NCBI GenBank assembly: GCA_003222055.1
Contig: QHUT01000070.1
Location: 1-64,000 of the forward strand
DNA length: 64,000 bases
Reading direction: 5' to 3'
Source of the DNA: Gemmatimonadota bacterium
GTDB lineage: Bacteria > Gemmatimonadota > Gemmatimonadetes > Gemmatimonadales > GWC2-71-9
Of the stretch, positions 47,501 to 59,141 are shown piece after piece. Made by a program: the position numbers and the translations under genes. Each line of letters begins with the position of its first letter. The first letter of the stretch is position 1. The notes under the pieces are model-generated. The model worked only from the letters and a program-made list of their open reading frames with translations, searched no databases and had not been told where the DNA came from.

Positions 47501-48057
47501 GCCGCCGTCTCTTCCAGCCGGCGCTCGGTGCTCGTCTTGCGGTCGCGGTACAGCCCGATCCCAGCCGCTTCTTCGAACAAGGCGCGCCGCTCCTCGGCCT
47601 TCTCGGATAGGAGCGCCTCGATCATCCTGGCTTCCATCACGACCGCGGCGTCCACACCGAGGCCCGTGCCGCGCAGCAGGTCCTGGATGTCGCGCAGCCG
47701 CACGGGCGATCGGTTCAGCAGGTACTCACTCTGGCCCGAGCGGGAGAGCCGGCGCGTCACCAGCACTTCCTGGTACGCGATGGGAAGAGTGCCGTCCGTG
47801 TTGTCGAACACGAGTGACACTTCCGCCACGTTCACCGGGCGGCGGCCGGTCGAGCCCTGAAAGATCACGTCCTCCATCTTGCCGCCGCGCAACAGGCGCG
47901 GCGATTGCTCGCCCAGCACCCAGCGCACGGCGTCGGAGATGTTCGACTTGCCGCAGCCGTTCGGCCCCACGATGGCCGTCACCCCGGCCTCGAACGGCAG
48001 CTCGACCGCGCCCGCGAACGACTTGAACCCCGACAGCTCCAGCCGGGTCAATCTCAT
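44563..48057 (-). CDS. smc: Chromosome segregation protein SMC
   Basis: This 1164-residue condensin ATPase has head halves at both ends: Walker A VGPNGCGKSNISDAV at about residue 32, signature LLSSGERTLVAVSLLFAIF and Walker B PFCLLDEVDAPLDDAN near the C-terminus. Long Glu/Arg/Ala-rich coiled coils flank a hinge at about residues 500-620 (KAQFGDAVIGPLSDFV, then GPLVLLPSVPGPALAADGHP). ATG 48057 overlaps the upstream SPOR gene stop. No scpA or scpB is in the window. The 1234-aa antisense ORF on the plus strand is a GC-skew shadow of the coiled coil. Confidence 0.96.
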   Translation of the reverse strand: MRLTRLELSGFKSFAGAVELPFEAGVTAIVGPNGCGKSNISDAVRWVLGEQSPRLLRGGKMEDVIFQGSTGRRPVNVAEVSLVFDNTDGTLPIAYQEVLVTRRLSRSGQSEYLLNRSPVRLRDIQDLLRGTGLGVDAAVVMEARMIEALLSEKAEERRALFEEAAGIGLYRDRKTSTERRLEETAADLARLEDLVSEVQTQVRSLARQRGKAERYVKMIEERFGIALTLVRHELEDFDLALGGLGQRAEQLAAALPAERTKQADAEQAREAEVQARHTAEARRTDVERRLNEARLEVGRLEGDLALAAERLRNAGQRRTTAGRRREQEAERALQTERERAAAEAECAAAEGDLGSVGQELAGRTALEQEVRDRLVAQRTAVRELEEAAQRRAEAFRALELERTALERERGELGQQLAQASQERAARAVAEWAATAAVGTRAQQAAALELAAAEAAEQLERARRQVAELKERETRGRATRGQTEEALAQVAARRDALAELERQRVGLAPAAQALLKEKAQFGDAVIGPLSDFVRTGRRDAELAEQLLGEWLHAVLVRDAAAVDAVRRWHDQAQPGPLVLLPSVPGPALAADGHPLQEGLRVDGPAAAWVHALLAGHEVLDGEGRGSRALRRANGAVFLAGRAAAGRAKGGGPLQRRADLDALAQEVADAEAARGASAAALEHTLAELAAAEAAFATAAEAAEQARHRELESAASKGDAERAAAHAQREAADATAQVERLSTRLSEVEARLTALHGEVDTHEVERVRLDERLGGERQRLVELETGQEAAREQRVKWQVDAAQVEARLAAARERAARAAAETDEARHQVATLVEEIAALDHDTTTLTAQQAQWEDTLKERRLAVGALEAAARDAEAQVAEADARLARSEGALDAARTALEARAAQEHKLELERTEILGTRRGLVAQIEAEWRKPLDQLLAEAPEVAGDVEWLRQENDRLRAAIDAVGPVNALAVDEHAEEMKRLEFLMTQRDDLVAARQSLQQAAREIDQTAKAMFLESFGKVRENFRTVFQTLFGGGECDVRLANEAEPLESEIEIHAAPRGKRTQRIHLLSSGERTLVAVSLLFAIFLTKPSPFCLLDEVDAPLDDANVGRYVRLLAEFKDQTQFIVITHNPRTMQAADAVYGVTMQEPGVSTIVGVRLGQMEPA

Positions 48058-49334
48058 GGTGTGGTCCCCATCCGGGTGACGAGAGTGCCGCGAACGCCCG
48101 CGCGCTTGAGGCGCGCTTCGAGCACACCCGCCTGCTCGGGGGTCTCGAACGCGCCCACCAGGAGGCGACCGTCGCGGTCCCGCGCCAGGGCCGGGATGCC
48201 GTGCGCCCGCAGATCGTCCGCCGACGTGGTGCCGCTCACGGCATACGAGTACGGCGCGCGCAGCACGTCGCCCTGACCGCGTTGGGCGAGCCGGCGACTC
48301 CACAAGGCGGCGCGTACGGCGACTGCCGAGTCGCGCGTCCGATACCCACCCGCGAGCACGCGATACCACACCGTGCCTCCGCGCCGCGGGCCCAGCGTGA
48401 CCGGGGTGACGAATGGCGTGATGCCGTCCGCCGTAAGCCGGTCGGCGAGCGCCAATGCGCGGTCGAGGCGCGCGTATGCCGCGAGTTGCACCGTCCAGGC
48501 GAGCGAATCGACGCGCGGCTGGGGCGGGGCGGCCGGGCGCGGCGCGGGCGCGGCGCGGGCGGGCGGGGTCGGGGCGCGGTGCTCCGCGCCGCGGACCAGC
48601 AGCGCCCACCCCCCGGCGGTGCCGGCGGCGAGCGTCGCGGCGATGACCACGGGGCGGGCTCGCCGGTGCGACGCTCCTGCCCCGACCCCCGGCCGCGTCG
48701 CCGCCGAGATCCGACCCGGCGGCGGCGCCACAGCGCGCGGGTCGGGGCCCGCTGTCGCGAGCGGCGTCCAGCGCTCACGTACCACACCCAGCAGGGGGAT
48801 GCCGCGCTCCATCGCGGCCGTGATCCCCTGGCCGATCGACGATTCCGGCTCGTAGCCGTCGGCCGAAAGCACAATCAACCCGTCCGGAACCGTCGACAAG
48901 CGTGCCAGGGCGCCGGCGGAGAGATAGAGCAACAGCAGGGCGTCTTCCGAGCGGAAGCCGCCGTGCAGCTTGCGCCAGCGGGGGTTGGCGAACAGGTCGC
49001 CCGCGTGCGCGGTGACCGTGCCGGCCGCGATGAAAAAGACGCGGTCCACCTCGTGGGCCGCCTTGGTGAGGGACACGTCGTATTCGAACGCGTCCACGAT
49101 GCCCTCGGCGGGGCTGAGGCCGACGACCTCGTGCAGCGTCGGACGCTCGAGCCACAGATCCACGAGCGCCACGCGCCGGTCGCCCTGGGCGGCGGCGCGC
49201 GCCACGTCCCACGCCGCCCCGGCGGCCCACGTGTGGTCCCCGGTCGCCGGGACCAGGGACACGAGCGCCTGACCGGTCAGGAGCGACGGCACGAGGGCGT
49301 CGAGCCGCGAGCGCGGCAGGGGACGACCGCTCAC
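48054..49334 (-). CDS. SPOR-domain protein with degenerate ParA/MinD-like N-terminus
   Basis: This is a 426-residue protein. Residues 20-200 read like a ParA/MinD fold (ALVSLVPATGDHTWAAGAAW, GDRRVALVDLWLERPTLHEVVGLSPAEGIVDAF, GLIVLSADGYEPESSIGQGI), but the Walker A GKGGxGKT is absent, so nucleotide use is doubtful. One membrane helix follows (RPVVIAATLAAGTAGGWALLV), then a Pro/Ala linker and a C-terminal SPOR-type domain with two repeats (WTVQLAAYARLDRALALADRL). It would span the inner membrane and bind septal denuded peptidoglycan. It is coupled to smc by an ATGA overlap. Confidence 0.8.
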   Translation of the reverse strand: MSGRPLPRSRLDALVPSLLTGQALVSLVPATGDHTWAAGAAWDVARAAAQGDRRVALVDLWLERPTLHEVVGLSPAEGIVDAFEYDVSLTKAAHEVDRVFFIAAGTVTAHAGDLFANPRWRKLHGGFRSEDALLLLYLSAGALARLSTVPDGLIVLSADGYEPESSIGQGITAAMERGIPLLGVVRERWTPLATAGPDPRAVAPPPGRISAATRPGVGAGASHRRARPVVIAATLAAGTAGGWALLVRGAEHRAPTPPARAAPAPRPAAPPQPRVDSLAWTVQLAAYARLDRALALADRLTADGITPFVTPVTLGPRRGGTVWYRVLAGGYRTRDSAVAVRAALWSRRLAQRGQGDVLRAPYSYAVSGTTSADDLRAHGIPALARDRDGRLLVGAFETPEQAGVLEARLKRAGVRGTLVTRMGTTP

Positions 49335-50806
49335 GGCGTCGGCTGGTAGATCCAGAAGGGCCGGCCGAGCTTGCGTCCGATCGCCTCGGCCTGCGCGCGA
49401 GTGGGATAGGGCCCGAGCACCACGCGATAGCCGTCGTCGGGATTCTTAGGCTGGAGGACGCGCGCCCCGAGCCCGGCCCGCGTCAGCTGCTGCGCCATCT
49501 CGGAGGACCAGGCCTCGTTCTGCGACGTCGAAACCTGCACGTACATCGGACCTTCGGGCCCGGCCGTGTCGGCGGCAGCCGCCTGATCCGCGGGCGCCGC
49601 GGCGCCGGCGTCCGCATCCGCGAACGCGCCCCGGTAGCTGCCCCGCGGCCGCCACGCCGTGAGCATCCAGAAGTCCGACGCCCCTCCTTTCGCGCGTCCC
49701 GTTTCGATCAGTGAATCGGGCCGGTAGGCGACGATGTCGTCGCCGCGCGGCACGAGCAGCGAGCCGTCCGGACTGATCGCCGGGAGATCGACGCGCCACC
49801 TGCACGGCACCGATCCCACCAGGCGCTTCACGGGGAGGTCCACGACCCACGCCGAGTCCCCTCCAGCCGGCTTGGCCAGAAGCCAGCGCCCCAGCGGGTC
49901 GAGCCGGATCGTCTCGGCGGGAAGCGGCAGCGCGACGCCGTCGATTTCTTCCCGATCGTAGCGATCGATCGCGGCCAGGCCGGGCTCGGTGCGCCGGGCG
50001 ACGTAGATGCGGTGGCCCGACGGCGAGAACACCAGCGCGCGCGGGTGGTCGCTCAGGGCGATGAACGTGGCCTCGCGCCGGCCCAACGGGTCCATCACGA
50101 GCACGCCCGAGTCCGTCGCCACGGCCACGACATCGCCCCACCGCGTCGCGGCGACGTCGCTGCCCGCCGGCAGCGGCCGGCTGGTCGGGGGCTGGTCGGC
50201 GGCGGCGGTGATCAGCTTGGGCGGGTCGGCCGCGACGAGCCGCTGGTCGGCCGCCCCGAACAGCTGCAACGGCACCGCGGGCAGTGGCTGTGGCCATGCG
50301 ACCCTCACGCGCCGAGCGGCCGACACCACGCGGCCCTTCGCATCCACCGTGTACAGCGTGCCGTCCGGGCCGAGCGTCGCCTGCTCGATGGCCGTCGCGA
50401 CGGTGTCCACGCGCGCGCTGCCGAGATCGAGCGCGAGCACGTCGCTCTTGAGGGTCGTGTCGCTCTTCGCCTTGGCGCCCTTCTTCCGGGTGGTCGTGTC
50501 CTTCTGGGGCGTGGTGACATACAGGAACTCGGCCTCTGGGTCGAGCCCGATCACCCGGCGGACCTGTGGCAACCTGCCGCGGATAGCCGTCGGGATCTCC
50601 ACCATGCTCGGCAGGCGGTAGACGCGCGGAACACCCCCCTTGGCGGGGATGCGGATCGCGACGCCGGCCGTGCGCGCCGCTCCGGCTGCCGCCTTGCTAA
50701 CTGCTTGTTTTGCTTGCGGTTGGGACGATGCCGCGGCGGGCGCCCGGGACCGGCAGCCCCAGAGCGTCAGGCTGATGAGGAGGACGTACGATCCACGGGT
50801 ACGCAA
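49331..50806 (-). CDS. SPOR-domain lipoprotein with beta-propeller-like body
   Basis: This 491-residue lipoprotein starts at TTG 50806. The signal is RTRGSYVLLISLTLWGC with the lipobox LWGC. The body has WD/YVTN-like repeats (PEAEFLYVTTPQKD, PRALVFSPSGHRIYVAR, IRLDPLGRWLLAKP, PAISPDGSLLVPRGDDIV). A C-terminal SPOR domain follows (MYVQVSTSQNEAWSSEMAQQLTRAGLGARVL, then YRVVLGPYPTRAQAEAIGRKLG). It likely sits in the cell envelope at division sites. It overlaps the second SPOR gene (ATGA) and has its own promoter-like element within an inverted repeat. Confidence 0.82.
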   Translation of the reverse strand: MRTRGSYVLLISLTLWGCRSRAPAAASSQPQAKQAVSKAAAGAARTAGVAIRIPAKGGVPRVYRLPSMVEIPTAIRGRLPQVRRVIGLDPEAEFLYVTTPQKDTTTRKKGAKAKSDTTLKSDVLALDLGSARVDTVATAIEQATLGPDGTLYTVDAKGRVVSAARRVRVAWPQPLPAVPLQLFGAADQRLVAADPPKLITAAADQPPTSRPLPAGSDVAATRWGDVVAVATDSGVLVMDPLGRREATFIALSDHPRALVFSPSGHRIYVARRTEPGLAAIDRYDREEIDGVALPLPAETIRLDPLGRWLLAKPAGGDSAWVVDLPVKRLVGSVPCRWRVDLPAISPDGSLLVPRGDDIVAYRPDSLIETGRAKGGASDFWMLTAWRPRGSYRGAFADADAGAAAPADQAAAADTAGPEGPMYVQVSTSQNEAWSSEMAQQLTRAGLGARVLQPKNPDDGYRVVLGPYPTRAQAEAIGRKLGRPFWIYQPTP

Positions 50807-50869: not shown

Positions 50870-53800
50870 TTAGAAGGTCGGCCCGAGACTCACCGTCCAG
50901 TAGGCGCCGGGGTGATCCGGCCGATTGAGCGGCTTGGTGATGTCGAACCGCAGCACCACGAAGCCGAGGAAGTTCATGCGGATCGAGCCGCCCCAGCTCC
51001 GCACGGGCGCGCGGTAGACCTCTTCATTTTGGCCTGCGCGGTTCCACACGACGCAGGAGCCAGCGGAGCCATCGCACGACGTGCCGTTCCAGGCGAGACC
51101 GATGTCGTAGAACAGGGCGCCTTCGATGGGTGGGAGCCCGACGGGCAAGAAGCCGAGCACCAGGCTGCGCGTCAGCGGGAAGCGCAGCTCCGCGTTGACC
51201 ACGGCGATCTTCGACCCGATGAGCTGGTCCAGACTGCTGCAGCGGGTGTATCCGCTGCTGCTCGTGTTGGGATTCAAGCACTCGTTGTCGAGGATCGAGC
51301 CCGCGGTGTAGCCGCGCAACAGCTCCGTGTTGCCGAGGAACTGCGGGAATATGTTAGCGTCGCGGCCGAAGCGGCCGGAGAACAGGCCGCGCACCGCGAG
51401 CGTGAACGGTCGAGCGAAGAAGTAGCGGCGCCAGTCGGCAAGGCCGGACGTGAACCGCCAGTCGCCGAACGTGGGGGAGAGCTCGAGCCGGGAGCGCGCT
51501 CCCGCGAACGGCCCGACGTAGCCGAACAACGCGTTGTCGTGGACCACGGCGATCTGCGGCCCGTAGTAGCTGATGGAAGCTCCGTCCACGGTCGCGGGGT
51601 CGCCGACGCCACAGACCGCGTGCGGAAAGGCTCGCTCCACGCAAAAGTCCTGCTGTAGTATCGCTTGACTGATGTTCGAGAAATGGCCGCCGAGCTCCAA
51701 ACGATCGAAGCGGTTGAACGGATAGAAGCCTTGCGCGAACACGTCGCGGATCACGAACCGCTCGATCTGGGACGTGACGATGACCGAGTTCGAGTCCGAG
51801 GGGTTGGGCTGCACCAGGGCCGGCAGGTATATGTACAGCGGCTCCTGGGACCCCCCGAACGCCCAGTTGAGGCGGTGGGCCTGGTTGATGTAGGCGGCGA
51901 GGACCTGCGCTTCGCTCAGCCGTCCGTTGACGGCGCCCGAGAACACCATCGTGTGGTTGCCCAAGATGTCCGACAGCGAGATGGCGGTGCCGCCGAAGAA
52001 GCCGCGTCCGAAGTTGTCGCGCGCGTACCCCACGGTCGGCTGAGCCACGTAATCGGGCGTGTAGCGGGTATGGTAGTCCTTGAACGTGAACTCAGTGGTG
52101 TCCGGGAGGGCAGGAGAGGAGTCGAGCAGCGCCTTCACCGACACCGCTCCGGGTCCCGCGCCCGAGTCGGACGACTGCGGCGCGCTCCCGGACGCGCGGA
52201 AGCCCGTGGGGGACCGGTACACCGAGGCGCCGCCGCGCTGCTCCGCGGCGGGTGGGGGAGTGGCCGCCTGCTCGGCCGGCTTCGCCGCCTGTCCCGCCTC
52301 GCGCTGCTGGGCGGCGAGCAGCGACGTCACCGGCATGGTGGCGGGCGGCTGGTACGGCTGGCGGCGCAGCGACCGGGGGTTGTCGACCGCGTATACGTTG
52401 TATTCGCCCTCTTCGTAGTAGGCGAAGGCGAGCCGGTCGGCCTCGTGCGCCCAGGAGAGGCAAGGCGAGAGCGGCGTGATGCCCGACACGCCGGTGTACA
52501 CGTCGGTGAGCTGGTAGATGTTGCCGTTGCCCACGTCGTACAGGAACACGTTGCTGATGCCGGAGCGGTCGGAGACGAACGCGAGCGACTTGCCGTCGGG
52601 TGCCCAGACCGGGTCGATGTTCTTCCCCTGATCCATGTGCCCCAAGAGCTCGATGGTGCCCTTGTCGAGATGGAACAGGGCGATGCGCATGTTGCCGAAC
52701 TTGAGGTCGTCGAAGTCGGTCTTGGCGCCGCGGTCGGTCGCGAACGCGATCGTTTTGCCGTCGGGGGCCCAGGACGGCTGGAGGTCGGCGTACTTGTCGT
52801 TGGTGAGCCGGCGCAGGTCGGAGCCGTCCGCGTTGACGATGAACAGGTCCGAGAGGCCGCCGTCGTAGCCCGTGAACGCCAGCTGCTTGGCGTCCGGGGA
52901 CCAGGCCGGCGTGGTGAGCCCGTTCAGCGGCAGGGGGATGCGGCGCACTTCCTCGTCCTTCTTCACGTCCAGGATCACGAGGTCGTCGCGGTCCTTGCGC
53001 TTCGCGGCGATGGCGAAGTAGCGGCCGTCGGGCGAGAACGAGCCGGCCGAGTTGATGAAGCGCAGGCTTTCGTAGTTGTTCGACAGCGTCGATTTCACGA
53101 GACGCCGCAGCACTTTGCCCGTCTCCGCGTCGGCGAGGTAGAGGTCGACGAAGAACGAGTTTTCCTCGCTGAAATACGCGATCTGGCGGCCGTCGGGGGT
53201 GAGTGCCGGCGCGATGTGCAGCGTGCCCTCGGAACGCTTGCGGGTGAGCAGGGGCTGTGCGATGCGGCGGGCCCGGTAGTGGTCGGCGAGCTGGGGCAGG
53301 TAGGTGGTCTGCACCGCGTCGCGCCACCCGCTGATCAGCTCGTCCAGGTTGACTCCGATCACGCGCTTGAACGCGCCCTCGACCCCCGCGGACGTCGACG
53401 CCTGCAGGATCTGGCCGACCGCTTCGTCGCCCCACTTCTCTCCGATGTAGTCCCAGATCGCGTGCCCGAAGTAGTAAGGGAACACCTCCTCATAGCTCAG
53501 TTGCTGGAGTGTCGGGAGGTGGCCTTCCACGGCCGCGTCCCGCAGCCACATGGCGGTGTGGTTGTCGATCGGCCCGACCGAGAGGTATTCCGCCATGCCT
53601 TCCATGAACCAGAGCGGCGGGGCGACATTGACGAGCGTCTGGATACCGGCGCCGATGCGACCGCGGCTGAACACGTCGTACTGGAACTGGTGCACCATCT
53701 CGTGCCCGATCACGTGGTCCAGTTCCTCGTAGGCGCCCGTGAACGGCAGCACCATGCGGTGCTTGAAGAAATCGGTGCTGCCCTGGAGGCCTTCGAAGAC

Positions 53801-54118
53801 GTCCGTGACGTTCGTCTGCTGGAAGTCCGACTGCGAGGCATACAAGATGATCGGCTTCCGGCCCAGGAACTGGTGATGCAACACCCGCGACAGCCGGGCG
53901 TACCACCGCTCGGCGATGCGGGCGGCGTCCAGCGCGCCCGCCCGCTCGGCCGGATAGTAATAGACCTCGAAGTGCTCGGTCTGGATGATGCGGAAGTCGA
54001 AGGACTTGTACTGCACCTTGTTCTTCCCGAAGCACTGCAAGCACTGCGCCGGGAGCGACGCCGCGCCGAACAGCGCGAGCGCCGCCACGATCCCGCCGAT
54101 GCGTCGCATGACCGTCAT
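50870..54118 (-). CDS. Metalloprotease-like / TolB-propeller / outer-membrane barrel fusion protein
   Basis: This 1082-residue exported protein has three parts. After the signal RRIGGIVAALALFGAASLPAQ, residues 30-280 form a peptidase-MA-like domain with HVIGHEMVHQFQYD (HExxH) and the downstream Glu in LWFMEGMAEYLS. Residues 330-640 hold TolB/PD40 repeats (ALTPDGRQIAYFSEE, SWAPDGKTIAFATDRG, VWAPDGKSLAFVSDRS). The last 400 residues form a BamA/Omp85-like barrel ending YWTVSLGPTF with terminal Phe. The start ATG 54118 overlaps the rsfS stop. I infer an outer-membrane anchored peptidase or assembly factor. Confidence 0.85.
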   Translation of the reverse strand: MTVMRRIGGIVAALALFGAASLPAQCLQCFGKNKVQYKSFDFRIIQTEHFEVYYYPAERAGALDAARIAERWYARLSRVLHHQFLGRKPIILYASQSDFQQTNVTDVFEGLQGSTDFFKHRMVLPFTGAYEELDHVIGHEMVHQFQYDVFSRGRIGAGIQTLVNVAPPLWFMEGMAEYLSVGPIDNHTAMWLRDAAVEGHLPTLQQLSYEEVFPYYFGHAIWDYIGEKWGDEAVGQILQASTSAGVEGAFKRVIGVNLDELISGWRDAVQTTYLPQLADHYRARRIAQPLLTRKRSEGTLHIAPALTPDGRQIAYFSEENSFFVDLYLADAETGKVLRRLVKSTLSNNYESLRFINSAGSFSPDGRYFAIAAKRKDRDDLVILDVKKDEEVRRIPLPLNGLTTPAWSPDAKQLAFTGYDGGLSDLFIVNADGSDLRRLTNDKYADLQPSWAPDGKTIAFATDRGAKTDFDDLKFGNMRIALFHLDKGTIELLGHMDQGKNIDPVWAPDGKSLAFVSDRSGISNVFLYDVGNGNIYQLTDVYTGVSGITPLSPCLSWAHEADRLAFAYYEEGEYNVYAVDNPRSLRRQPYQPPATMPVTSLLAAQQREAGQAAKPAEQAATPPPAAEQRGGASVYRSPTGFRASGSAPQSSDSGAGPGAVSVKALLDSSPALPDTTEFTFKDYHTRYTPDYVAQPTVGYARDNFGRGFFGGTAISLSDILGNHTMVFSGAVNGRLSEAQVLAAYINQAHRLNWAFGGSQEPLYIYLPALVQPNPSDSNSVIVTSQIERFVIRDVFAQGFYPFNRFDRLELGGHFSNISQAILQQDFCVERAFPHAVCGVGDPATVDGASISYYGPQIAVVHDNALFGYVGPFAGARSRLELSPTFGDWRFTSGLADWRRYFFARPFTLAVRGLFSGRFGRDANIFPQFLGNTELLRGYTAGSILDNECLNPNTSSSGYTRCSSLDQLIGSKIAVVNAELRFPLTRSLVLGFLPVGLPPIEGALFYDIGLAWNGTSCDGSAGSCVVWNRAGQNEEVYRAPVRSWGGSIRMNFLGFVVLRFDITKPLNRPDHPGAYWTVSLGPTF

Positions 54119-54522
54119 CCTTTCGCCCCGCCCTCGGGTGCGCCCGCCGCGAGCACCGGGGCGTCGCCCCACAGGCGCTCGAGCTGATAGAACTCCCGCA
54201 ATTCCGGATGAAAAACGTGCACCACGAAATCCACGTAGTCGAGCAGCACCCACCGCCCCTGGACCAGTCCTTCCACGTGATGCGGCACGATGCCGCGCGG
54301 CTCGAGCGCGGTCATCAAGTGTTCCGCCATCCCCCGCACGTGGGCGTCCGAGGTCCCCGACACGATCACGAAAAAATCCGCCGCAGCCGTCAGGCCACGG
54401 AGGTCGAGCACCATCGGGTCGATCCCTTTACGGTCGACGAGCGCCGCCGTCACGAGCTGCAGCGCCGTCAGTGCATCGCCGCCGGGGCGCCCCGCCGGGC
54501 GCCCGCTTCGCCTGCTAGTCAT
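54115..54522 (-). CDS. rsfS: Ribosome silencing factor RsfS
   Basis: RsfS binds ribosomal protein L14 and blocks subunit joining in starved cells. The 135-residue protein shows the family core MVLDLRGLTAAADFFVIVSGTSDAHVRGMAEHL and the C-terminal GRWVLLDYVDFVVHVFHPELREFYQLERLWGDAP (in parts). The location after rplI fits a ribosome-related operon. Its TGA overlaps the ATG of the large barrel protein gene. The Gly/Pro-rich ends are unremarkable. Confidence 0.95.
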   Translation of the reverse strand: MTSRRSGRPAGRPGGDALTALQLVTAALVDRKGIDPMVLDLRGLTAAADFFVIVSGTSDAHVRGMAEHLMTALEPRGIVPHHVEGLVQGRWVLLDYVDFVVHVFHPELREFYQLERLWGDAPVLAAGAPEGGAKG

Positions 54523-56467: not shown

Positions 56468-57076
56468 ATGCAAGCAGCAGGTCTCTGGATTCTCGCGCGC
56501 GCTACGCGCGCCGCTGCGGCGGCGGCAGGGTTGCTCACCCTGCTGGCGCTGCAGCCGGAGCCTGCCCGTCTCACGGCGGTCGCGTCGGTGCGCGTTTCGC
56601 ACGCGCGGGCGCTCGTACTCTCCGAGCAGGCGCGTCGCTACCTGATCCTGCAGTATCGGTCGTTCCCCACGGAGTTCATGGGCTGCATGATCGGCGAGGT
56701 CCACGGCAACGCGGTGATCGTGCATCGTATCGCGCCCGCCGATGTCGATCCGAAGCAGTCCACGGAGACGCGCGTCGTGCCGAAGCAGACATGCGAGGAC
56801 GCCGGCTGGATGGGTACGGTGGGCGTGATCCACAGTCACCCCACTGGCGAGCGCTGCTGGTACTTCTTCCCGGGCACGCAGGTGGCGACGTCGGACGCCC
56901 AGTCGTTCGGACGCCAGCCCTATCCGGTGGACGCCATCATGTGCGGTGACCGCGTGGTCTGGATCAGCCGCGACATGGCACAGCAGCAGGTGCACCTGGT
57001 CGAGACGGACCCGCATCCGGTCGCGCGGCTGCTCCAGCGGGGCATCCGCGTGCCCGCCGGTTCCGCGGCGCCGTAG
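56468..57076 (+). CDS. Exported JAB/MPN (Mov34)-domain protein
   Basis: This 202-residue protein has a JAMM-type metalloprotease core: the Glu in FPTEFMGCMIGEV, the VGVIHSHPTG zinc motif (HxHP) and an ATSDAQSF segment supplying the Asp. The usual Ser two to three positions before that Asp is shifted, so activity is uncertain. The N-terminus has an Arg pair and a long Ala/Leu hydrophobic stretch (AAAAAAGLLTLLALQPEPA), which looks like a signal peptide or anchor. Most bacterial JAB proteins are cytosolic, so export would be notable. The start ATG 56468 follows ggaaggaa. Confidence 0.78.
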   Translation: MQAAGLWILARATRAAAAAAGLLTLLALQPEPARLTAVASVRVSHARALVLSEQARRYLILQYRSFPTEFMGCMIGEVHGNAVIVHRIAPADVDPKQSTETRVVPKQTCEDAGWMGTVGVIHSHPTGERCWYFFPGTQVATSDAQSFGRQPYPVDAIMCGDRVVWISRDMAQQQVHLVETDPHPVARLLQRGIRVPAGSAAP

Positions 57077-57135
57077 GCCCCTCCCACTCCGCTCTCCCCG
57101 GGACGCGGGCACGCGTCACGCAGTAGATTCCGGCT

Positions 57136-57864
57136 GTGAAGCCCGTCGCGCTGAGCGGCCTGCTCGTCCTGTGCGTGGGCGTCCCTCGTTTGCCGGCGCA
57201 GGTCGGGCGTGACACCACCGCCCGCATCGTAGGGACGGCGCGGTCGTCCACCAATGGCCTCCCGATCGCCGGCGTGATGGTCGCCCTGCGGGGGGCCCGC
57301 GCGTTCGGCGTGAGCGATAGCGCCGGGGCCTTTGCGCTCGCCGGGCTTCCGCCGGGACGGCAGACGGTCCGCATCCTCTACCGCGACAGCCTGTCGTACG
57401 ACAGCGAGGTCACGCTGAAGCGCGGCAAGACGCTGGCGCTCTCGGTGCTGCTCGACGTCGACGCGGTGGAGTTGAGCCCGATCGTCGTCGAGGCGAGGAG
57501 CTGGCGCGCCGACCGCAGTCTGGCCGGCTTCTACGACCGTAAGAAGTGGCGGTTCGGCCGGTTCTACACGCTGGCCGATCTCGATCGCCGCCACGGGCTC
57601 TCGCTGCGAACACTGTTGGGGGAGTCGGGAGTGCAACTGCGGTGCGGTGCCATGTACTGCCTGCCCTTCAGCGGGATCATGGGCGGATGCGTGATGTCGC
57701 TGTTCTACGACGGCATGCGACTGCCGGCCGATCAGATCGAGATGATACGGCTCGATGAGCTCGCCGGTGTCGAGGTGTACAAGCACGGCTTCGACGTGCC
57801 CATAGAGTTCCAGAACCCCTTCGGGGGTGACTGCGGCGCCGTTTTGGCGTGGAGCCGGTACTGA
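57136..57864 (+). CDS. Exported CarboxypepD-regulatory-like / TonB-plug-like protein without barrel
   Basis: This 242-residue protein starts at GTG 57136 with signal VALSGLLVLCVGVPRLPAQ. Residues 28-110 form a carboxypeptidase-regulatory beta sandwich (RIVGTARSSTNGLPIAGVMVALRG, AGLPPGRQTVRILYRDS). Residues 115-242 resemble a TonB-receptor plug (LSPIVVEARS, LFYDGMRLPADQIEMIRLDELAGVEVY). The protein stops where the barrel of a receptor would begin. Four cysteines lie in the plug part. It may be a stand-alone periplasmic domain or a truncated receptor. It is adjacent to the lipoprotein gene by a one-base overlap. Confidence 0.75.
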   Translation: MKPVALSGLLVLCVGVPRLPAQVGRDTTARIVGTARSSTNGLPIAGVMVALRGARAFGVSDSAGAFALAGLPPGRQTVRILYRDSLSYDSEVTLKRGKTLALSVLLDVDAVELSPIVVEARSWRADRSLAGFYDRKKWRFGRFYTLADLDRRHGLSLRTLLGESGVQLRCGAMYCLPFSGIMGGCVMSLFYDGMRLPADQIEMIRLDELAGVEVYKHGFDVPIEFQNPFGGDCGAVLAWSRY

Positions 57865-59141
57865 TGCGACGGCTGCTCGCCCGGCTCACCGTGCCGGCGT
57901 GCCTCCTCGGCGCCTGTCGCGGACCGAGTAAGGAGCCCGGGCACATCGCCATCGAAGATCGGATCCCCCTTCCTGGCCCTCCCCCCGCTGCGCTCGCACT
58001 GTCGGAGTTTCGACCCCGGATGCGCGCTGATGTCGATAGCGGGGGGCGTTGCCGCGAGGATTTCTATTGGAGCGCACGCGGGTATCGGGCGGTTGTGTGG
58101 CGGCGTGACGGCGAAAACCGTCGGTTTTGGAAGATCCAAGTCGCCACGGACAGCGCCGGTGTGGTACGGCGCTATTACGAGGACCGGTACGGCTACACGG
58201 CCGGCCGCACGATCATTCTGGTCGACTTCGACGCGGGCCGGGGCTCGGTGGAGAACGACATCCCCGATCTACCGGCCCAGACCGCCGCCGCCGATGCGGC
58301 AACTGTGTTTCACGCGCCGCAGCTCGACGATCCCTCTCTGCAGGCCGCCCGTATCCTCGAACGCTGCCGCGCGTCGCTCGACCCGTGGGGCTCGCTCGCC
58401 CGCTTCCCCGACAGTTTGACCGCGCCGCCGCCACCGCGCCCGCTCCCTCGCGTGGCGAGCGTTGACCGGTCGTTCCGGGATTCCACACTCGGCGTGGGAT
58501 ACCTCGCGCCCGGGGCGGATGGTGTCAACAGTTTCAGCGGCTTTGAATGGTTCCGCCACGTGATCGTGCCCGTATACGACGGACCGTCCGGGCCCGTCGC
58601 GGCGTGGCTGGCGCGCGGATGGGTGGCGCGGCGGCGGGCGCCGCGCTGGAGCTGGGGCGAATGGACGGTCGGCGGGTGGATCGGCACGTCGTCTGAGGGC
58701 ACCGCCCTTCCGGTCCTGGTGCTGCGGGACGACGGTTGGCTCCGGTTCCGTTACGCGCCGCCGACGACGGGCGACGACGGAACGGTTTGGACGCACCGGT
58801 CGCACCTTGCGGTGGGAGATGTCACGTTGGCGGTCACTCGGTGGGAAGACCACTTTCTGCATCAGGACGTGCCCACCTACTTCCGGGAGCTCGGGCGACA
58901 TCCGCTGCGTGGCGCCCGCGGCGACACGAGCGCCGTGCTCGCGTGGCTCGAGGGGCGCGTCGGCAGGGTGCCCGAGTACAGCGTCGCTCCTCTTGAGATC
59001 GACGGAGACTGGATGAGGGTTCGCGTGCAGTGGCCGGGCCAATGGTGCGGGACCGCGCCGCAACGCACGGCGGAGGGTTGGATCCGGTGGCGGCGGCCCG
59101 ATACGGGACCGATGGTTGCGATTCGTGGGTTCATCTGCTGA
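57864..59141 (+). CDS. Large putative lipoprotein, hypothetical
   Basis: This 425-residue protein begins MRRLLARLTVPACLLGAC, with a LGAC lipobox, at ATG 57864 overlapping the upstream TGA by one base. The body is rich in Trp, Arg and Asp (WFRHVIVPVYDGPSGPVAAWLARGW, WSWGEWTVGGWIGT), suggesting a beta-rich or SH3-like periplasmic domain, and ends with WCGTAPQRTAEGWIRWRR. No catalytic motif or family is recognised. It is the last gene of the small envelope cluster and converges on ychF. Confidence 0.72.
   Translation: MRRLLARLTVPACLLGACRGPSKEPGHIAIEDRIPLPGPPPAALALSEFRPRMRADVDSGGRCREDFYWSARGYRAVVWRRDGENRRFWKIQVATDSAGVVRRYYEDRYGYTAGRTIILVDFDAGRGSVENDIPDLPAQTAAADAATVFHAPQLDDPSLQAARILERCRASLDPWGSLARFPDSLTAPPPPRPLPRVASVDRSFRDSTLGVGYLAPGADGVNSFSGFEWFRHVIVPVYDGPSGPVAAWLARGWVARRRAPRWSWGEWTVGGWIGTSSEGTALPVLVLRDDGWLRFRYAPPTTGDDGTVWTHRSHLAVGDVTLAVTRWEDHFLHQDVPTYFRELGRHPLRGARGDTSAVLAWLEGRVGRVPEYSVAPLEIDGDWMRVRVQWPGQWCGTAPQRTAEGWIRWRRPDTGPMVAIRGFIC

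What the first reader, a model, noticed from the sequence alone, without database searches (positions are those of the whole stretch)
50870..54118. Peptidase, TolB propeller and Omp85-like barrel in one polypeptide
An HExxH metalloprotease-like domain, PD40 repeats and a C-terminal-Phe barrel are fused in a 1082-residue exported protein, replacing the separate TolB and protease partners of other envelopes. It lies in the ribosomal/SMC gene train, implying growth-linked expression.
Basis: partly seen in the sequence, partly recalled or inferred. Interest (0 to 1): 0.5.

Follow-up and report, generated by a model that had tools for sequence, protein, structure and literature searches.

The report
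Outer-membrane barrel fused to a metalloprotease
A soil bacterium of the phylum Gemmatimonadota carries, next to its ribosomal genes, a three-part outer-membrane protein (a zinc-protease domain, a propeller and a BamA-type barrel) that nearly every member of its phylum has kept, and whose protease part does not appear to have been described before.

Summary
On the minus strand, 54118 to 50870 encodes 1082 residues: signal peptide, gluzincin-type metallopeptidase (HEMVH plus E173), six-bladed PD40/TolB-like propeller, low-complexity linker, and a 16-strand Omp85 barrel with RGY in loop 6, FxDxG in strand 13, a C-terminal Phe and no POTRA domain. AlphaFold gives mean pLDDT 85 and pTM 0.82. The peptidase metal ligands are invariant in 58 homologues down to about 38% identity. 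147 of 150 Gemmatimonadota genomes have it; Latescibacterota, Zixibacteria and Eisenbacteria do too. The gene follows rpsF-rpsR-rplI-rsfS (rsfS adjacent in 64 of 64 loci) and usually precedes two SPOR-domain genes. It resembles the "WD40-Omp85" subfamily described in 2014, whose main text does not mention a peptidase; the domain falls below Pfam thresholds. Most likely it is a periplasmic, outer-membrane-anchored protease that handles outer-membrane protein clients, BepA-like in logic. Catalysis, topology and substrate are inferred, not shown.

The parts
50870..54118 (-). Whole gene: 1082-aa peptidase / PD40 propeller / Omp85 barrel fusion, stop codon included
   Evidence: translation; Pfam; homologues over full length; structure model
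54047..54118 (-). Predicted signal peptide, about residues 1-24 (MTVMRRIGGIVAALALFGAASLPA)
   Evidence: sequence: n-region RR, hydrophobic core, AxA-like end; homologues show the same pattern followed by QYFGQNKVQY. No signal-peptide program was available
53282..54037 (-). Gluzincin (peptidase MA superfamily) domain, residues 28-279
   Evidence: Pfam on 33 homologues: Peptidase_MA_2 in 18 (best 2e-8), Peptidase_M9 in 33; fold search best hits collagenase G/T/H peptidase domains (E 5e-5 to 8e-4), then M1/M61 peptidases
53690..53704 (-). HEMVH, residues 139-143: two histidine metal ligands and the catalytic glutamate
   Evidence: translated; invariant in 58 of 58
53585..53611 (-). WFMEGMAEY, residues 170-178: E173 proposed third metal ligand, 30 residues after H143
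   Evidence: translated; E173 invariant in 58 of 58; aligned with WWSEGVAEY of a microbial collagenase
52382..53257 (-). Six-bladed PD40 / TolB-like beta propeller, residues 288-579
   Evidence: PD40 1.2e-28; TolB PDB hits by sequence 1.5e-20 and by fold 6e-12; blade count is mine from the strand list
52139..52351 (-). Low-confidence Ala/Pro/Ser/Gly-rich linker, about residues 590-660; the wider 585-670 region is 57-135 aa long in homologues
   Evidence: pLDDT below 50 over most of 613-655; composition and length
50873..52036 (-). Omp85-type 16-strand barrel, residues 695-1082, C-terminal Phe, no POTRA before it
   Evidence: Omp85 Pfam E 3.9e-9; profile of 20 homologous barrels hits F. nucleatum BamA at 9e-7 and nine other PDB sequences, all named BamA; strands
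51308..51316 (-). RGY, residues 935-937: Omp85 loop-6 motif, between strands 11 and 12
   Evidence: translated; R in 56, G in 58 and Y in 49 of 58
51098..51112 (-). FYDIG, residues 1003-1007: Omp85 (F/G)xDxG motif on strand 13
   Evidence: translated; D1005 58 of 58, F1003 55, G1007 56
54115..54522 (-). rsfS (ribosomal silencing factor); its stop overlaps the start of the fusion gene as ATGA
   Evidence: Pfam RsfS 7e-30; sequence; directly upstream in 64 of 64 testable Gemmatimonadota loci
49331..50806 (-). SPOR1: candidate lipoprotein with a C-terminal SPOR domain
   Evidence: Pfam SPOR 1.3e-8; downstream in 47 of 52 loci; lipobox-like start in 46 of 56 relatives by my pattern
48054..49334 (-). 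SPOR2: SPOR-domain protein with a probable transmembrane stretch, overlapping SPOR1 by 4 bases
   Evidence: Pfam SPOR 1.9e-15; nearby in 39 of 42 loci (some SPOR1/SPOR2 matches may be cross-hits)

Best explanation
The gene makes an exported outer-membrane protein. Its C-terminal Omp85-type barrel sits in the outer membrane. In front of it, and most likely in the periplasm, lie a TolB-like propeller and an active zinc metallopeptidase of the gluzincin kind. I propose that it works as an outer-membrane-tethered quality-control or maturation protease: barrel and propeller recruit unfolded or stalled outer-membrane or periplasmic proteins and the peptidase cuts them, one chain combining jobs that E. 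coli spreads over BamA/BamB and the M48 protease BepA. Shown here: gene, domain order, conservation of metal-ligand and Omp85 motif residues, confident predicted fold, near-universal presence in the phylum, conserved gene neighbourhood. Inferred: metal binding and catalysis (from invariant HExxH + E), periplasmic topology (even strand number and the PlpD precedent), substrate class and biological role.
For: Invariant HExxH and E173 in 58 sequences argue for selection on catalysis. Peptidase-MA/M9 similarity by profile and fold. Omp85 identity by Pfam, PDB profile search, fold, 16 strands and both RGY and FxDxG motifs. In PlpD, another Omp85 fusion with an N-terminal enzyme, the enzyme stays in the periplasm (PMC11116518). 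BepA shows that a metallopeptidase working at BAM degrades stalled LptD and BamA (PMC8423444). Found in 147 of 150 genomes of the phylum, as expected of an envelope housekeeping function.
Against: No substrate, expression or phenotype data. No POTRA domain, so a client-handling role of the barrel is less certain than in BamA or TamA. DegP-like and M48 proteases are also present, so the job may be narrower. The conserved SPOR neighbours point towards the septum and peptidoglycan rather than to BAM.
Confidence: 0.45

Rival explanations
1. Surface protease delivered by its own barrel: the peptidase and propeller are exported through or during assembly of the barrel (type Vd-like) and digest external protein, with the long linker threading the barrel.
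For: Nearest fold hits are secreted collagenases. The linker is long and disordered.
Against: The type Vd prototype PlpD was found to keep its enzyme in the periplasm (PMC11116518). A closed propeller plus peptidase of about 550 residues would have to pass unfolded. Near-universal presence and synteny with rsfS suit housekeeping better than foraging.
Confidence: 0.2
2. Septal envelope factor: the fusion protein, the SPOR1 lipoprotein and SPOR2 form a trans-envelope module that acts on the outer membrane or on peptidoglycan-linked proteins at the division site.
For: SPOR1 and SPOR2 follow the gene in 47 of 52 and 39 of 42 Gemmatimonadota loci. SPOR domains are known to bind denuded septal glycan (own knowledge). 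In two Latescibacterota loci the gene lies 3-4 kb upstream of tolR/tolA/tolB-like genes.
Against: The SPOR neighbours are absent around the gene in Latescibacterota and Eisenbacteria loci, so they are not needed for the conserved core function. Gene adjacency alone does not show interaction.
Confidence: 0.2
3. One reading: the fusion stands in for absent separate TolB, BAM or protease components.
For: TolB-like propeller score, and no BamB model match above its cut-off.
Against: Complete Tol-Pal operon, POTRA-bearing BamA, DegP-like and M48 proteases in the same genome. Only 1 of 14 control genomes passes the BamB cut-off, so that absence says little.
Confidence: 0.03
4. A catalytically dead scaffold whose peptidase fold is used only for binding.
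For: No activity data exist, and no Pfam peptidase family reaches its cut-off for this protein.
Against: All four catalytic and ligand residues are invariant across several phyla and present in the divergent own-genome paralogue (HELTH..EGLATYYE).
Confidence: 0.07

Closest known systems
WD40-Omp85 subfamily (Heinz and Lithgow 2014, PMC4104836)
   Same: TolB-like propeller N-terminal to an Omp85 barrel, no POTRA; most likely the subfamily to which this protein belongs
   Different: The main text describes only the propeller, compares the proteins with a BamA-BamB fusion and mentions no N-terminal peptidase. Their member list is in a supplement that I could not read
PlpD / patatin-Omp85 (type Vd)
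   Same: N-terminal enzyme fused to a C-terminal Omp85 barrel; precedent for a periplasmic enzyme (PMC11116518)
   Different: Phospholipase instead of metallopeptidase, one POTRA domain, no propeller
BepA (M48 metallopeptidase at the BAM complex)
   Same: Periplasmic zinc peptidase working on outer-membrane protein clients (PMC8423444)
   Different: Different peptidase family, TPR domain, separate soluble protein without barrel or propeller
TolB
   Same: Six-bladed PD40 propeller; best PDB matches by sequence and fold
   Different: Scores 131 bits against an equivalog cut-off of 343, no TolB N-terminal domain found; a genuine Tol-Pal operon is elsewhere in the genome
Bacterial collagenases (M9) and peptidase MA superfamily
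   Same: HExxH plus downstream EGxAEY, similar predicted fold
   Different: Low identity (11-16%), below Pfam cut-offs, membrane-anchored context

Membership tests
Omp85 superfamily | 16-strand C-terminal beta barrel | tested here: met
   AlphaFold model with 16 membrane-type strands by my count, pLDDT mostly above 80 in the barrel; BamA fold hits
Omp85 superfamily | RGF/RGY motif in loop 6 between strands 11 and 12, and (F/G)xDxG in strand 13 | tested here: met
   R935 56/58, G936 58/58; F1003 55/58, D1005 58/58, G1007 56/58. The definition of the motifs is from own knowledge
Omp85 superfamily | at least one N-terminal POTRA domain (classical members) | tested here: not met
   No POTRA match while BamA and a second Omp85 in the same genome match it; the linker is disordered. 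POTRA-less subfamilies are recognised (PMC4104836)
WD40-Omp85 subfamily | N-terminal TolB-like propeller joined to an Omp85 barrel without POTRA | tested here: met
WD40-Omp85 subfamily | clusters with the published members by barrel sequence | not testable with these tools
   the member list is in supplements (no look-ups allowed)
Gluzincin / peptidase MA superfamily | HExxH with a downstream Glu as third ligand, on successive helices | tested here: met
   invariant in 58; helices 130-150 and 169-181; PF13485 in 18 of 33 homologues. Metal distances not measured
Gluzincin / peptidase MA superfamily | zinc-dependent proteolysis | not testable with these tools
   needs an assay
TolB (Tol-Pal) | equivalog model TIGR02800 above cut-off | tested here: not met
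   130.8 against 343.15 bits. The genome's Tol-Pal-operon TolB also scores below it, 234.7, so the cut-off is strict for this phylum
TolB (Tol-Pal) | TolB N-terminal domain and place in the tol-pal operon | tested here: not met
   no such domain; its gene neighbours are rsfS and SPOR genes, and the tol operon is on another contig

The most novel reading that the evidence does not exclude
A phylum-wide core outer-membrane machine in which an Omp85 barrel, a propeller and an active protease form one chain, tied through SPOR-domain partners to the division site: an outer-membrane protein quality-control or remodelling protease with no counterpart in model diderms.
Probability: 0.2. Interest if true: 0.75.

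Novelty: new variant of a known kind. Interest (0 to 1): 0.45.

Why it matters
Omp85 proteins build the outer membranes of bacteria, mitochondria and chloroplasts; nearly all studied ones carry POTRA domains. Here is a POTRA-less Omp85 barrel with a strictly conserved protease domain in front, near-universal in an entire phylum and present in neighbouring phyla. If the protease is active at the membrane, it would be an outer-membrane protein quality-control device built into the barrel itself, and it gives the so far unexplained WD40-Omp85 group a testable enzymatic function.

Tried and rejected
Plus-strand reading of the same stretch contains a stop and no recognisable protein. The longer GTG start (1127 aa) was set aside: the ATG at 54118 gives a signal peptide and matches the homologue starts. 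Pfam alone does not identify the peptidase in this protein (BSP and M9 below cut-off); it took homologues and a fold search. The 'Metallo' Omp85 class of the 2014 paper was considered and rejected: its domain is PF00149, which I know as the calcineurin-like phosphoesterase family, not an HExxH protease. Lipoprotein status of the fusion protein (PAQC near residue 26) was rejected: no proper lipobox, and the Cys is absent in most homologues. Promoter and terminator scans gave no excess over shuffles. Barrel-only phmmer against PDB found nothing; a profile did.

Full report
Observation. The finding lies on the minus strand: 54118 to 50870 is one open frame of 1082 residues from an ATG that overlaps the stop of rsfS as ATGA. 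The plus strand of the same stretch is not a gene. Pfam gives PD40 repeats (1.2e-28) and an Omp85 domain (3.9e-9) above cut-off; peptidase families are only hinted at.

Domains. AlphaFold on an alignment of 58 sequences gives mean pLDDT 85.1 and pTM 0.82. From the strand and helix list I read: signal peptide (1 to about 24); a mostly helical domain 43-279; a six-bladed propeller 288-579; a poorly predicted linker (613-655 mostly below 50); and 16 membrane-type strands from 695 to 1079. The fold search finds TolB propellers (6e-12) and BamA barrels (2.5e-8). The N-terminal domain predicted alone (pLDDT 81.4) finds the peptidase domains of clostridial collagenases G, T and H (5e-5 to 8e-4), then M1 and M61 peptidases. 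Scanning 33 homologous N-terminal domains gives Peptidase_M9 in 33 and Peptidase_MA_2 in 18, best 2e-8. A profile search aligns HExxH and WFxEGxAEY with the same motifs of a microbial collagenase (E 0.0072).

Conservation. H139, E140, H143, E173, W170, F171, G174, A176, E177 and Y178 are identical in all 58 sequences, which go down to 38% overall identity; in the barrel, R935 56/58, G936 58/58, D1005 58/58. These are the Omp85 loop-6 and strand-13 motifs (motif identity: own knowledge). A profile of 20 barrels matches Fusobacterium nucleatum BamA at 9e-7, with RGYDGG and FxDxGxAW aligned; the other nine PDB matches (0.0013 to 0.033) are named BamA too. No POTRA domain is found.

Distribution. 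A homologue with E below 1e-60 is in 147 of 150 Gemmatimonadota genomes at least 90% complete (only the five best candidates per genome were scored, so the three misses may not be real), in 21 of 21 close relatives, in 6 of 6 genomes of the group of L107, an Eisenbacteria record, and in Latescibacterota and Zixibacteria records. Many genomes hold a second copy. The window's own genome has a divergent second fusion on contig C10 with HELTH, EGLATYYE, IRGYGAG and a C-terminal Phe.

Neighbourhood. Upstream on the same strand are rpsF, rpsR, a membrane-protein frame, rplI and rsfS; downstream come two SPOR-domain genes and smc (rpsF and rpsR are read by eye). In Gemmatimonadota loci with enough flank, rsfS is adjacent in 64 of 64, L9 upstream in 60 of 60, SPOR1 in 47 of 52, SPOR2 in 39 of 42 (SPOR1 and SPOR2 profiles may cross-hit). 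In Latescibacterota and Eisenbacteria loci this neighbourhood is absent; in two Latescibacterota loci the gene lies 3-4 kb upstream of tolR/tolA/tolB-like frames (read by eye). The loci came from a search for close relatives, so synteny counts describe orthologues, not every paralogue.

Does it replace other parts? No. Contig C58 of the same genome carries MotA/TolQ/ExbB, ExbD/TolR, TonB_2, PD40 (TolB), OmpA (Pal) and TPR frames in order. A BamA-like protein with POTRA domains and a second POTRA-bearing Omp85 are on C16 and C121. DegP-type (5) and M48 (6) matches exist.

Known work. Heinz and Lithgow (PMC4104836) defined a WD40-Omp85 subfamily with a TolB-like propeller and proposed a role like a BamA-BamB fusion. 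Their main text names no peptidase in it. A library search for the subfamily name returned only that paper. In PlpD the enzyme domain is periplasmic (PMC11116518). BepA is a metallopeptidase that degrades stalled outer-membrane proteins at BAM (PMC8423444).

Interpretation. I rate the anatomy as secure (about 0.9) and the functional proposal (outer-membrane-anchored periplasmic quality-control or maturation protease) at 0.45. The main uncertainty is substrate and side of the membrane. Metal binding, catalysis, topology, expression and interaction with SPOR proteins are all untested here.

Noticed in passing
window 48054-50806 (-): Two SPOR-domain genes in tandem (4-base overlap) directly downstream, the first a candidate lipoprotein; conserved next to the fusion gene through most of the Gemmatimonadota loci examined. 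A possible three-gene envelope module.
   Followed up: partly
L128:59-4921 (+), contig C10 of the same genome: Second, divergent fusion of the same order (HELTH..EGLATYYE, propeller, IRGY barrel, C-terminal Phe) that Pfam barely recognises (only PD40).
   Followed up: partly
window 56468-59141 (+): Three opposite-strand genes between ychF and rpsF: a Prok-JAB (Mov34-type) peptidase candidate, a CarboxypepD_reg protein and an unassigned 430-aa frame.
   Followed up: no
L102:12290-15292 and L104:12639-14826: In Latescibacterota the fusion gene lies 3-4 kb upstream of tolR/tolA/tolB-like frames, a different neighbourhood from Gemmatimonadota.
   Followed up: no
window 54037-54045 (-): This clade has CLQCFGKN where most homologues have QYFGQN at the mature N-terminus; two extra cysteines of unknown meaning.
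   Followed up: no
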